From Chloroflexota bacterium (GTDB lineage: Bacteria > Chloroflexota > Anaerolineae > Ardenticatenales > JAADHH01), in NCBI GenBank assembly GCA_013151955.1, contig JAADHH010000048.1, positions 1 through 32,779 of the forward strand: a stretch of 32,779 nt of DNA, read 5' to 3'. Of the stretch, positions 10,550-24,405 are shown one piece after another. The position numbers and the translations under genes were made by a program. Numbering within the stretch: the first letter of the stretch is position 1; every line of letters begins with the position of its first letter. Under the pieces are notes generated by a model, which saw nothing but the letters and a program-made list of their open reading frames with translations, did no database searches and was not told the DNA's origin.

Positions 10550-12226
10550 TTACTGTCGCACGAACTTTACCGCGTCAAACCCGATGCTGCGGCTGAGGAA
10601 GGGCTCTCCCGTTGCGTCGCCCAAGAGGACAAATTCGCCACCCCCCGCCGAAAAGTTGTACGTCCCCAGGCTGACCCACTGATCATAGTAGATGGCCTGG
10701 TTCACCAGATGGTCTGAACGTTGGCCGTCGTGATAGATTTGGTACAGGCCGCTCATGGTGCTGGCGTTCCGGCTGGGGATGAAGACAAAGACCTCGTACT
10801 GTCCCGGTCCCGGCAAGGCGGGTGTCCATTTCCCGGAATTGACCGTGCCGTAGGAGACGTTGTAGGTCCAGTAGCTATGGCCGCTATAGCCGGCCGTCGA
10901 GTCTCGCCGGCCGGTCAGCGGGCCGCCCCAGGCGAACCCGGCGTCTTGCTCATCCACGATCACCGTTTGCGTGCCGCCGTTCCCCTGGCCTTGCTCCCAC
11001 CACACCTTGGCCGAAGCGTAGCCGCCATTCTCATAGTATTCCACTTTCACGTCGTGGTTTCCGGCCGAAAGGGTCGCAGTTCCGGAGACAGTTGTCGCCG
11101 GCTGATCCACCCAGCGGTCGATCACCAGGGCGTTATCCACCCACAGGCGCACCCCATCGTCCGTGCGGGCGTAGAAGATGTACGAACCACCGGCCGGGAA
11201 ACTCGTGGTGCGCGTCCAGCGGACAGAGAAGTCGTCGGCGTGGAGACGGGCGTCGGGCGAACCGGCCCCCCAATCGCAGTCAATGGCCGAATCCCAGCGC
11301 GTGAACGTTGGGGAGCCGGAAAGCGAAACGTTTCCGAAGTATTCCCCCTGCCAATTTCCTTGTGCTGTGCCCAGCTTTTCCCACGAAACCTTGGCTACCG
11401 CTCCACCGCCATGCTCGTAGAACTCGGTCAGGAGCTGGTGGTCGCCGGCGAGGAGATAAATGTCTGCGGAGTAAGAGGTCGGGGCCTGGTCGTGCCACTG
11501 ATCGATGATGCGGTGCGCGTCCACTTGCAGGCGAATGCCATCATCGGCAGTGACGTGGAAACGGTAGGTGCCGGCGTCGAAATGGAGGGCGCGCGTCCAG
11601 CGGACCGAGAAGTTGTCGCCCGAAACCCCGCCCCCCGGCGAGCCGCTGCCCCAATCGAATTGAATGTCGTGGTCATTGCGAGTCAGCACCGGTGTGCCGA
11701 GCAGGTCGGGATTGTTGAAGTATTCGCCCTTCCACTCGGGATAGGAAGTGCCCGGCCCTTCCCACCAGACGTGAATCAACGCTCCTCCGCCATTCTCGTA
11801 GTAGGCCACTTGCGCAACGTGGTGCCCGGCCAGCAAATTGATCTGGGCGCTAAACGTAGTCGCGCCTTGGTCTTGCCACTGATTGATCAACAATTGACCG
11901 TCTACCCAAAGCTGAACGCCGTCATCGCTCGTGGCATAGAACGTGTAGCTGCCGGCCGGCAAATCGAGCGTGCGGGTCCAGCGTGCCGAGAAATGGTCGG
12001 CCGGCAAAAGGGGGTCCGGCGAGCCGGTTCCCCAGTTGAAATCGAGGTCTGCATCGGAGCGCACTACGGCAGGGAATCCTTGCAGAGACATGTTGGCGAA
12101 GTATTCGCCATACCAGTAGGGGTCCGTATGGGCCGGTTCGACCGGCCCTTGCGCAGAAGCGGCCGGCAACATATTCGGAAGGAACAGAGCAGCCAAAGCA
12201 AACAACATCCAAACGAACCGTTTCAT
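10550..12226 (-). CDS. Secreted protein with three PA14 domains and a golvesin-type C-terminal domain
   Basis: A 558-residue exported protein. Residues 1-26 are a signal peptide (hydrophobic stretch, ASAQ cleavage region). Three consecutive PA14-type beta-barrel modules follow at about 36-156, 162-284 and 289-412, each with the GEYF opening, the DDFSVRWTR-type core and DDGVxLWVD calcium-binding-type motif; the second has a less canonical DDGIRLQVD. Residues about 420-558 resemble the golvesin C-terminal/xanthan-lyase carbohydrate-binding-like domain ([12 protein letters not shown]...IGFDAVKFV). There is no catalytic domain, so a carbohydrate- or surface-binding role is likely. GGAGGT lies 5 nt before ATG 12226. 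A MITE-like element fills the gap to the upstream gene. Confidence 0.88.
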
Positions 12227-12258
12227 CGTACACCTCCGGCAAAACATGGGGAGCCAGC

Positions 12259-12380
12259 CAGGCGACGAATGAATTCGCCGCCTGATACTACAAAGTGCGT
12301 TGAAACTATCCAGAGAAGGGCGACAGTAACCCGTTAAAACGGGCTTCGCAATAACAGGCGGGGAATTCATCGCTCGCCTG
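12259..12380. mobile_element. MITE-like inverted-repeat element, copy 1
   Basis: Terminal arms of 26 bp at 12259-12284 and 12355-12380 are inverted copies of each other (22 of 26 positions match), both starting or ending with CAGGCG/CGCCTG and containing GAATTC. The interior holds a small hairpin, CCCGTTAAAACGGG. A shorter relative is at 24246-24330. There is no transposase gene. The right arm overlaps the end of the methyltransferase gene and provides its last codons and stop. Confidence 0.75.
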
Positions 12381-13269
12381 TTGAAGCCCTCCGCCGTCTT
12401 CTTCTCGATGGGCGATCCCGGCCGGCCGCGCCACGCACAGACGCAATCCAACGTTGGCAGTATTCGTCGTGGCCCATCATCACGTCAGCAGCCGATACGG
12501 TTTTGCGCAGCGTCTCTTCGAGCGGGTTGGTAATCGCGGCCGTCAGGCCGGCACCGATGGCCATGGCCAGGAACGCCACGTTCAGGAGCAATCTATCGGG
12601 CAAGCCAAAGGAGATGTTGCTGGCCCCACACACCGTGTTGACGCCCAGCTCTTGTCGAATCAGGCGAACCGTCTCCAGGGTAACCGTTGCCGCCCGGTGG
12701 TCGGCCCCCACGGTCATGGCCAGGGGATCAACGACCACATCGTTTGGGGAGATGCCATAGTCCTGCGCGCGCTCGACAATCTTCCGGGCGATCTCCAGCC
12801 GGCCCTCCGGCGTGGCGGGAATTCCGCGCTCGTCGTTTGCAATCCCCACAACAGCCGCTCCGTGTTTCTTGGCCAGGGGGAGGACTCTTTCCAGGGAGGC
12901 GTCTTCCCCCGTCACAGAGTTGATCAACGGCTTGCCCTGATAGACTTGCAGTCCGGCTTCCAGGGCTTCGATGACAGACGAATCAAGGGAAAGGGGAACA
13001 TCCACCACCTCCTGGACCGCCCGGATCGCGGCCGCCAGGATGGCCGGCTCGTCTGCGCCGGGGACGCCGGCGTTCACATCCAGCATCTGCGCGCCGGCAG
13101 CTACCTGCGCGACGGCATCCTGCTGGACCCGGCTGAAGTCCATTGCGCCCATTTGCGCGGCCAACAGGCGTCGTCCGGTAGGGTTGATGCGCTCGCCGAT
13201 GATGACGAAGGGATGGTCGGGTCCAATCGTTACGGTTTTGGTGGGTGAGGAGACGGATGTTTCAGGCAT
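12367..13269 (-). CDS. Methyltetrahydrofolate:corrinoid methyltransferase-like pterin-binding protein
   Basis: A 300-residue TIM-barrel protein of the pterin-binding (DHPS/MeTr) superfamily. Motifs: GERINPTGR (25-33), DVNAGVPGADE, LSLDSS, INSVTGE, VVDPLAMTVGADH and GASNISFGLP. These fit AcsE-type or MetH-like enzymes that pass a methyl group from methyltetrahydrofolate to a corrinoid protein; no corrinoid protein or other C1 genes are nearby. ATG 13269 is chosen because AGGAG is 7 nt upstream (ATG 13275 would be only 1 nt away). The C-terminus is odd: a run of six arginines, then ASTGER, with the last codons lying in the right arm of the MITE-like element at 12259-12380. Confidence 0.86.
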   Translation of the reverse strand: MPETSVSSPTKTVTIGPDHPFVIIGERINPTGRRLLAAQMGAMDFSRVQQDAVAQVAAGAQMLDVNAGVPGADEPAILAAAIRAVQEVVDVPLSLDSSVIEALEAGLQVYQGKPLINSVTGEDASLERVLPLAKKHGAAVVGIANDERGIPATPEGRLEIARKIVERAQDYGISPNDVVVDPLAMTVGADHRAATVTLETVRLIRQELGVNTVCGASNISFGLPDRLLLNVAFLAMAIGAGLTAAITNPLEETLRKTVSAADVMMGHDEYCQRWIASVRGAAGRDRPSRRRRRRASTGER

Positions 13270-13283
13270 GAACATGCTCCTAG

Positions 13284-22750: not shown

Positions 22751-22795
22751 CCTGCACATTAACCTTAAAAAGCGATAGTATTCAAGGAGTGAAAA

Positions 22796-24247
22796 ATGGA
22801 TGATACCGGGCCGGTGCAGCGCGCACCATGGTTCGATCTCTTCATGAGTTTCCTCCTCGTAGCATTTCTTGTGGGTGGGTTGTTTTCCGGCTATCTTTTC
22901 TATCAGACGGTACGCCGTGTTGTTGCGCACAACCAACTCCCCCCACTTCCTCATCTCGGTGGTGTGTCGCCCGCCCCACCCTCTTCTTCCCAAGGCACCC
23001 AGCCTCTTGGTGCCGCAGAATCTGGTTCACCGAACAAAGGCGGACCCTCTGCCCCCCTGGAATATCGCCAAGATCGGGTGAATGTGCTGCTTATGGGCAT
23101 AGACAAGCGAGAAGGCGAGGTTGGCCCCTGGCGCACAGACACAATGATTCTGCTCACGATAGACCCTCGCCAACGAACAGCCGGAATGGTCTCCATCCCA
23201 CGGGACTTGTACGTAACGATTCCCGATTTTGGCATAGGCCCCATTCAGAGTCGGATCAATACGGCCTTCTTCTATGGGGATCTGCGCCACTATCCAGGAG
23301 GAGGGCCGGCCCTGGCCAAGGAAACCATTCGCCGCAATTTTGGGATTCCGGTTCAGTACTACGTGCTGATAGACTTCGAGGGGTTCCGAAAACTGATCGA
23401 CCTGGTCGGGGGGATCGTGGTAGATGTGCCGAAAGAAATTCTGGACACACGTTACCCGGATGGCAACCGTGGCATCATGACCGTGCATTTCCAACCGGGC
23501 GTACAGCACATGGATGGCGTACAAGCCTTGCAATATGCGCGGATCCGTCATAATGGCACAGACTTCTCGCGGGCAAAACGACAACAACAGGTGATTCTGG
23601 CCATCCGCAATCGCGTGCTGGACAAGAACCTGCTCACCGACATGACTCCAACCAAACTGCTCGACATTCTGCGAACGTTTGGCAACACCGTGAAGACCGA
23701 CATGCCTTTGGAAGATGGCATCTTCCTCGGCCAGATCGCGCGTGACATCCCGCCCGAATCGATCCACCGTTTGGTGATTGACGAAAACATGACCGAGTAC
23801 TTTGTCACGGAGCAGGGCGCACAGGTTTTGCGCCCCAAATGGGATCAGATCCGGGCCAGCGTGAAACCCCTCTTCAGCAATGTCGCACCGGTGGCCGCTG
23901 TCACGCCATACCCATCCACCGTGCCCGGAGAAACGACCTGGGAGGGCGTCCGCATCGAGGTGCGCAATGGCACGCAACAGGCCGGAATTGACCAGCACGC
24001 AGCACGCTCCCTGCAGAGCCTGGGATACACGGCCCGCGCCACAGGGTACGCGGACCGGCGGGATTATGCACGAACGTCAATCATCGTATACGGCGACAAA
24101 CTGTACACTGCGCGCCGTCTGGCCCAGTTGCTCAACGTGCAGGTCGAAGATCTCCAGCACTTACCGGCCCACCCCGATCAGCCCGACCAACCGGACATCA
24201 TCCTGATTGTGGGGCAGAACGCGTTGCAGACCTCACTCCTTCAGTAG
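22796..24247 (+). CDS. LytR-CpsA-Psr (LCP) family envelope protein
   Basis: A 483-residue membrane-anchored protein. After a short cytoplasmic tail there is one transmembrane helix (about 15-38) and a Pro/Ser/Gly-rich linker (47-88). The LCP domain runs from about 93 to 270: NVLLMGIDKR, RTDTMILLTID (arginine and aspartates that bind metal-pyrophosphate), SIPRDLYV, INTAFFYG, QYYVLIDFEGF, DGVQALQYARIRHNGTDFSRAKRQQQV. A LytR_C domain follows at about 384-475. Family members transfer lipid-linked glycopolymers to the cell wall or to proteins outside the membrane. AAGGAG precedes ATG 22796. Its stop codon TAG lies in the first bases of the MITE-like element at 24246-24330. Confidence 0.93.
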   Translation: MDDTGPVQRAPWFDLFMSFLLVAFLVGGLFSGYLFYQTVRRVVAHNQLPPLPHLGGVSPAPPSSSQGTQPLGAAESGSPNKGGPSAPLEYRQDRVNVLLMGIDKREGEVGPWRTDTMILLTIDPRQRTAGMVSIPRDLYVTIPDFGIGPIQSRINTAFFYGDLRHYPGGGPALAKETIRRNFGIPVQYYVLIDFEGFRKLIDLVGGIVVDVPKEILDTRYPDGNRGIMTVHFQPGVQHMDGVQALQYARIRHNGTDFSRAKRQQQVILAIRNRVLDKNLLTDMTPTKLLDILRTFGNTVKTDMPLEDGIFLGQIARDIPPESIHRLVIDENMTEYFVTEQGAQVLRPKWDQIRASVKPLFSNVAPVAAVTPYPSTVPGETTWEGVRIEVRNGTQQAGIDQHAARSLQSLGYTARATGYADRRDYARTSIIVYGDKLYTARRLAQLLNVQVEDLQHLPAHPDQPDQPDIILIVGQNALQTSLLQ

Positions 24248-24330
24248 ACGACGAATGAATTCGCCGTCTGATACGGTAAAGTGCGTTGAAACGGGTTTCG
24301 CGACAACAGGCGGGCAATTCATTGCTCGCC
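24246..24330. mobile_element. MITE-like inverted-repeat element, copy 2
   Basis: The left arm (24246-24270) and right arm (24307-24330) correspond to those of the element at 12259-12380. The interior ATACggTAAAGTGCGTTGAAAC matches the first copy; about 35 bp present there between two AAAC words are missing here. It begins in the stop codon of the LCP gene and lies in the convergent gap before the DUF2085-like gene. After it, 24331-24405 contain an aaaaatctgtgtttatcc word and nothing else recognised. Confidence 0.75.
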
Positions 24331-24405
24331 GAGGCCGGCCTGAGTAGTAACGAAAAATCTGTGTTTATCCCGCAAATCCGTGTCCCATTATTCTCCGGCA
24401 ACCGG

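What the first reader, a model, noticed from the sequence alone, without database searches (positions are those of the whole stretch)
12259..12380. MITE-like element supplies the C-terminal codons and stop of a methyltransferase-like gene
The 122-bp element has 26-bp inverted ends (22/26 matching). Its right arm covers the final codons TGER and the stop of the 300-residue protein, which ends abnormally with a six-arginine run. The insertion may have replaced the native C-terminus. The arms are themselves near-palindromic (CAGGCG...CGCCTG), so the element could also act as a transcript-end structure.
Basis: partly seen in the sequence, partly recalled or inferred. Interest (0 to 1): 0.55.

Follow-up and report, generated by a model that had tools for sequence, protein, structure and literature searches.

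The report
Jumping-DNA remnant ends a methyltransferase gene
A worn copy of a small mobile DNA element, related by its ends to IS66 (ISBst12-group) transposons, lies at the end of a bacterial methyltransferase gene and provides its stop codon and last three or four amino acids, while the odd-looking run of arginines just before it is a normal feature of this protein family.

Summary
The repeat is real. 12259-12380 is one of at least 22 near full-length copies of a MITE family in the host genome. Intact members carry a further outer inverted repeat, GTTACTRCTCAGSC, and 8-bp target duplications: 15 of 22 repeat-bounded elements have 8/8 identical flanks, against 0 of 462 mismatched pairings. These ends match single-ORF IS66-family insertion sequences found in same-class genomes and the published, active ISDge4 of the ISBst12 group (PMC12898284). 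The window copy has lost the outer repeats, so it is a decayed copy.

The gene is a methyltetrahydrofolate:corrinoid methyltransferase. Its TGA stop and the codons G-E-R lie in conserved MITE sequence; T is probable. The arginine run is not abnormal: 90 of 109 homologues have at least 4 arginines in their last 14 residues, and none has the outer repeat near its stop. Tail length (21) equals the homologues' median. So the element replaced the stop and a few residues, not a domain; the effect is probably neutral. The transcript would fold into a very stable hairpin (z -7.2) without a terminator U-tract.

MITE-supplied stops are already known (Coxiella QMITEs).

The parts
12367..13275 (-). methyltetrahydrofolate:corrinoid/iron-sulfur protein methyltransferase-like gene (Pterin_bind), 302 aa, ending RRRRRRASTGER*
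   Evidence: NCBIfam NF005719 329.8 bits against cut-off 259; Pfam PF00809 99.7 bits; ORF
12259..12380 (-). MITE family-A copy, outer terminal repeats missing or decayed; strand is the orientation GGCGAGC..ATGAATT..GGCGGCGAATTCATTCGTCGCC
   Evidence: blastn against own genome: 30 matches at E<=0.001, aligned part 12260-12378 in the best relatives; alignment of 23 copies; no outer repeat found at <=2 mismatches
12259..12284 (.). left arm of the 26-nt inverted ends
   Evidence: 22 of 26 matching with the right arm
12355..12380 (.). right arm; holds the stop and last codons of the gene
12367..12369 (-). TGA stop codon, inside the conserved AATGAATT motif of the MITE
   Evidence: in the printed stretches of the 23 aligned copies TGA is present in 22, TAA in L020
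12370..12378 (-). codons G-E-R supplied by MITE sequence (family consensus G-[EK]-Q)
12388..12405 (-). six arginine codons, native to the protein family
   Evidence: 109 homologue tails
10550..12226 (-). next gene, PA14/Golvesin_C protein, 558 aa from ATG at 12226; Shine-Dalgarno-like GGAGG at 12233-12237 just beyond the element
   Evidence: Pfam PF07691 223.1 bits; sequence
24246..24351 (-). second MITE-A copy in the window, internally deleted, with one exact outer repeat GTTACTACTCAGGCCGG at 24335-24351

Best explanation
The element is a decayed, non-autonomous MITE whose intact sisters have the terminal repeats (GTTACTRCTCAGSC) and 8-bp target duplications of ISBst12-group IS66 transposons. 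A copy inserted at or just after the end of a methyltetrahydrofolate:corrinoid methyltransferase gene. Later loss of its outer repeat and of the native stop let the reading frame run into the MITE's subterminal sequence GGC GAG CRA TGA, which now supplies G-E-R (probably T as well) and the stop. The arginine-rich tail before it is ancestral. The protein is most likely unaffected; at the RNA level the element puts a stable hairpin across the stop codon and ahead of the next gene, which could affect 3'-end processing but is not an intrinsic terminator. Shown: repeat family, target duplications, terminal repeats shared with IS66, codons and stop inside conserved MITE sequence, native arginine tail. 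Inferred: order of events, neutrality, RNA effect.
For: At least 22 near full-length copies in the genome, 73-83% identical to the window copy over most of their length. 81 exact outer-repeat 13-mers in the genome against 0 for the reversed control. 15 of 22 repeat-bounded elements with 8/8 and 18 of 22 with at least 7/8 flanking duplications, against 0 of 462 mismatched pairings at 7/8 or better; three of these are family A (L010, L012 8/8; L014 7/8). IS66 TnpC loci of the same class: 20 of 33 have an inverted pair of the GTTACTACTCAG type, 8 of the 17 with readable flanks have exact 8-bp duplications, and L291 has 12/12 repeats at both ends, 1572 bp apart; the transposase meets NCBIfam's IS66 equivalog cut-off (304.4 against 180 bits). 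ISDge4 (ISBst12 group) has ends GTGACTACTCAGCA / GTAACTGCTCAGCA and an 8-bp repeat (PMC12898284, passages). Homologue tails: median length 21, window 21; 90 of 109 arginine-rich; outer repeat near the stop in 0 of 109.
Against: The window copy itself has no recognisable outer repeat or target duplication, so its own transposition is inferred from sisters. No IS66 transposase was found in this draft genome (PF03050 0 matches; protein search no match at 1e-40). No empty site in a close relative was available. Homologue ends vary: of the 90 tails that contain RR, 15 have five or more residues after the last RR, so residues A-S, and perhaps T, could be native.
Confidence: 0.85

Rival explanations
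1. The repeat is a REP/BIME-like extragenic palindrome kept as a transcript-end or processing structure, not a transposon remnant; its overlap with the stop is incidental to that role.
For: Very stable whole-element hairpin. Several copies lie at the 3' end of genes whose stop is within about 25 bp of the aligned core: family-supported genes in L001 (window), L002 rplF, L004, L007, L014 HAD, L016 rsmD, L022 LytR, L023 TadE, 8 of 23 copies examined.
Against: Intact sisters have terminal repeats and 8-bp target duplications, which a REP would not. No terminator pattern in 12150-12480. No control for the 3'-end counts was run.
Confidence: 0.1
2. The MITE replaced a longer native C-terminus and altered the enzyme.
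For: The last residues differ from every homologue tail printed, none of which ends TGER.
Against: Tail length equals the family median (21) and the arginine-rich segment is intact; the family profile match ends at residue 282, before the tail.
Confidence: 0.04
3. The T-G-E-R-stop sequence is native and resembles the MITE by chance.
For: The outer repeat is missing on the gene side of this copy.
Against: The sequence is continuous with 100+ bp of MITE homology (E below 1e-15 to at least 14 other copies), and the motif is conserved in copies at unrelated sites.
Confidence: 0.01

Closest known systems
ISDge4 / ISBst12 group of the IS66 family (PMC12898284, passages read)
   Same: Near-identical ends (GTGACTACTCAGCA / GTAACTGCTCAGCA against GTTACTRCTCAGSC) and an 8-bp target duplication.
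   Different: ISDge4 is autonomous, with a 449-aa transposase; the elements here are 34-174 bp and code for nothing.
QMITE1 and QMITE2 of Coxiella burnetii (PMC5896051, passages read)
   Same: MITEs lying over the 3' ends of functional genes and conferring the stop codon and 0-16 or more C-terminal residues; protein size little changed.
   Different: Different terminal repeats and direct-repeat lengths (2-3 nt and 7-11 nt), different host, and no link to IS66 seen in the passages read.
REP/BIME extragenic palindromes (recalled; abstract start of PMC2817692 seen)
   Same: Short, palindromic, multicopy, mostly between genes.
   Different: Here outer terminal repeats and 8-bp duplications identify DDE-type transposition.

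Membership tests
MITE | short, non-coding, multicopy | tested here: met
   at least 22 near full-length copies of about 100-135 aligned bp in the own genome
MITE | terminal inverted repeats | tested here: met
   met for the family (L010, L012, L014 and others); not met for the window copy itself, whose outer repeats are absent
MITE | target-site duplication | tested here: met
   met for the family: 8 bp, 15 of 22 exact, 18 of 22 at 7/8 or better, control 0 of 462; none recognised for the window copy
IS66-type (ISBst12 group) mobilised element | terminal repeats of that IS group | tested here: met
   IS66 TnpC loci of the class: inverted GTTACTACTCAG-type pair in 20 of 33, L291 12/12 at both ends; ISDge4
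IS66-type (ISBst12 group) mobilised element | 8-bp target duplication | tested here: met
   MITEs; IS66 elements, 8 of 17 with readable flanks exact
IS66-type (ISBst12 group) mobilised element | cognate transposase in the same genome | tested here: not met
   0 PF03050 matches in the draft genome, 86% complete; no TnpC match at 1e-40
IS66-type (ISBst12 group) mobilised element | mobilisation by an IS66 transposase | not testable with these tools
   needs a transposition assay
Intrinsic terminator | G+C-rich stem followed by a T run | tested here: not met
   0 sites in 12150-12480

The most novel reading that the evidence does not exclude
A single terminal-repeat type (GTTACTRCTCAG, ISBst12-group IS66) drives a large, undescribed set of MITEs with unrelated interiors across the host's bacterial class, down to 34-bp elements made of little more than two ends, and these repeatedly take over the stop codons of housekeeping genes (here the corrinoid methyltransferase, and rsmD in L016), acting as a source of new C-terminal codons and 3' hairpins.
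Probability: 0.35. Interest if true: 0.5.

Novelty: new member of a known kind. Interest (0 to 1): 0.3.

Why it matters
It turns a vague 'MITE-like' repeat into an element with a named transposase family, and corrects the tempting idea that an arginine run is insertion damage. It adds one case, with a likely second (rsmD), of MITEs supplying stop codons, and points to a widespread set of elements with IS66-type ends. No paper was found for MITE with IS66 family, terminal inverted repeats and 8 bp, for miniature inverted-repeat with Anaerolineae (the class name is my guess from record titles), or printing this repeat in such a context (9 listed papers, judged by title only); these cover only the open-licence library.

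Tried and rejected
Transposase hunt: PF01609 (DDE_Tnp_1) in five genomes, 59 places of which 30 were given loci; 7 of these showed any repeat-like site at <=2 mismatches and none was bracketed by an inverted pair; one with two same-direction repeats (L269) proved to be an IS1182-like gene (my reading of the protein, no family search) between two MITE pieces. PF13610 (IS6 type): 1 match in five genomes, no repeat within 3 mismatches. IS66 in the own genome alone: 0; in the other four genomes it gave the answer. A 91-bp repeat end at contig edges was first taken for an IS end but is another MITE of about 142 bp. A 2.4-kb pair of repeats in G075 proved to be two 151-bp MITEs.

A TSD-like pair near the window element (CCTCCGGC on the left, CCTCCGCC on the right, 7/8) was seen by eye and dropped: no test was run, and read by eye the frame joined across it would lack a stop before the next gene.

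Plasmid records: no match. Enrichment of copies at gene 3' ends was counted (8 of 23 with family-supported genes) but not tested against an expectation, so nothing is claimed from it. L280 and L281 were given to the script but gave no row (no tblastn hit at 1e-10). L009 was probably aligned in the wrong orientation. In one search the class search drew 298 genomes, 396; neither is the whole class.

Full report
Observation. The 122-bp element is there. Its 26-nt arms match at 22 of 26 positions and the minus strand folds far better than shuffles (-69.3 against -41.5 kcal/mol, z -7.18, 0 of 200 shuffles as good). The gene on the minus strand, 12367-13275, belongs to the methyltetrahydrofolate:corrinoid/iron-sulfur protein methyltransferases (NF005719, 329.8 bits against a cut-off of 259). 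It ends ...SRRRRRRASTGER and TGA, the TGA at 12367-12369. The gene downstream on the same strand is a PA14/Golvesin_C protein whose ATG is at 12226 with GGAGG at 12233-12237.

It is a repeat family. Blastn of window 12240-12400 against the host genome (3.02 Mb in 166 contigs) gave 30 matches at E<=0.001, at least 22 of them near full length, including the window itself. Aligning 23 copies with flanks shows that many have a further outer sequence, GTTACTACTCAGG... at one end and CTGAGCAGTAAC at the other, which the window copy lacks (a 17-mer search with 3 mismatches finds the repeat only at 24335-24351 in the window). The outer 13-mer occurs 81 times exactly in the genome, the reversed control 0 times.

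It is a transposon family. Among the 89 own-genome loci examined, 22 distinct elements of 34-174 bp are bounded by the repeat at <=1 mismatch; 15 have identical 8-bp flanks and 18 at least 7 of 8, against 0 of 462 pairings of one element's left with another's right flank. Three of the 22 are of the window's family (L010, L012, L014). The others have quite different interiors (G-rich about 130 bp, about 163-173 bp, about 142 bp, and 34 bp with almost no interior).

The transposase family. A class-level search found the exact 14-mer in 45 of 298 genomes, and the elements inspected there were again MITE-sized. PF03050 (IS66) matched in 4 of 5 repeat-bearing genomes, not in the host. One gene, 494 aa (P0001), scores 304.4 bits against the IS66 equivalog cut-off of 180, and a GTTACTACTCAG-type repeat overlaps its stop. 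Searching 396 class genomes with it gave matches in 42. In 33 loci (30 and three, where L290 is the query's own locus), 20 have an inverted pair of this type around the gene; of the 17 whose 8-bp flanks are readable on both sides, 8 are exact duplications; L291 has GTTACTACTCAG at both ends, 1572 bp apart. The 13 loci without a pair include partial genes and contig ends. ISDge4 of Deinococcus geothermalis, an IS66 element of the single-ORF ISBst12 group that was seen to transpose, has ends GTGACTACTCAGCA and GTAACTGCTCAGCA and an 8-bp repeat (PMC12898284, passages read). The MITEs therefore have ISBst12-group ends. Whether such a transposase moved them in this host is inferred, as none was found in the 86%-complete draft.

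What the element gives the gene. In the MITE orientation that enters the gene's 3' end, the printed stretches of the 23 copies show AATGAATT or a close variant in 22, and TAA in place of TGA in L020. In the gene's frame the common sequence reads G-[E/K]-Q-stop; the window reads G-E-R-stop.

The arginine run is native. All 109 homologue loci (L062-L170: 29 from the class search, 80 from the public genome contigs) had a readable tail. Length after query residue 281: median 21, quartiles 18 and 22, range 5-40; the window has 21. At least 4 arginines in the last 14 residues: 90 of 109; RRR: 75; RRRR: 46; RRRRRR: 9. In the 29 class members the trait is less common: 16 and 10 of 29 for the first two measures. 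None has the outer repeat within 60 bp before to 250 bp after its stop.

Other copies. Of the 23, eight have a family-supported gene whose stop is within about 25 bp of the aligned core: this gene, rplF, an SdrD_B protein, a DNRLRE protein, a HAD hydrolase, rsmD, a LytR/CpsA/Psr protein and a TadE protein. In L016 rsmD ends Y-S-S-G-D-stop with the stop inside the element, a probable second case; its orthologues' tails were not checked. No expectation was computed, so no enrichment is claimed.

RNA level. The hairpin spans the stop codon and lies upstream of the next gene's GGAGG. No intrinsic-terminator pattern occurs in 12150-12480. Processing by an RNase or an effect on the next gene is possible and untested.

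Comparison. In Coxiella, QMITE1 and QMITE2 overlap the 3' ends of functional genes and confer stops and short tails with little change in protein size (PMC5896051, passages read). The case here is the same kind of event with a different, IS66-type element.

Verdict. A decayed IS66-type MITE that supplies a stop codon and three or four residues; the striking arginine tail is ordinary. New member of a known kind; interest modest, raised a little by the link from many MITEs to one transposase family.

Noticed in passing
window 24246-24351: Second MITE-A copy, internally deleted, with an exact outer repeat on one side; its other end begins at the stop codon of a LytR/CpsA/Psr gene (22793-24247).
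   Followed up: partly
L052 at 1500-1533 and L221: 34-bp elements made of two terminal repeats and almost nothing else, with perfect 8-bp target duplications: minimal IS66-type mobile units.
   Followed up: partly
L035, L038, L040, L043, L227 and others: Several MITE families with unrelated interiors share the same terminal repeat in one genome.
   Followed up: partly
L205, L209, L247, L248 (G277) and L269 (G129): In other genomes the same ends enclose palindromes of the types ATTTCGACCGAAGGGAGAAATCTC and GTCATTGCGACC, known to me from memory as common bacterial repeats; these may be IS66-type MITEs.
   Followed up: no
L284 / L288: The end of the IS66 tnpC reading frame falls in the right terminal repeat (CTGAGTAG), so the repeat gives the transposase its stop.
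   Followed up: partly
C-termini of L062-L170 homologues: The arginine-rich C-terminal tail of this corrinoid methyltransferase family is widespread in records titled as gammaproteobacteria, alphaproteobacteria, Acidimicrobiia and Chloroflexi; its function is unknown to me.
   Followed up: no
L016 1595-2185 (-): rsmD ends Y-S-S-G-D-stop inside a MITE-A copy, a probable second MITE-supplied stop.
   Followed up: partly
L014: The HAD gene's TAG stop lies in the 8-bp target duplication (GAATAGGT/GAATAGGG) of an intact MITE-A copy.
   Followed up: no
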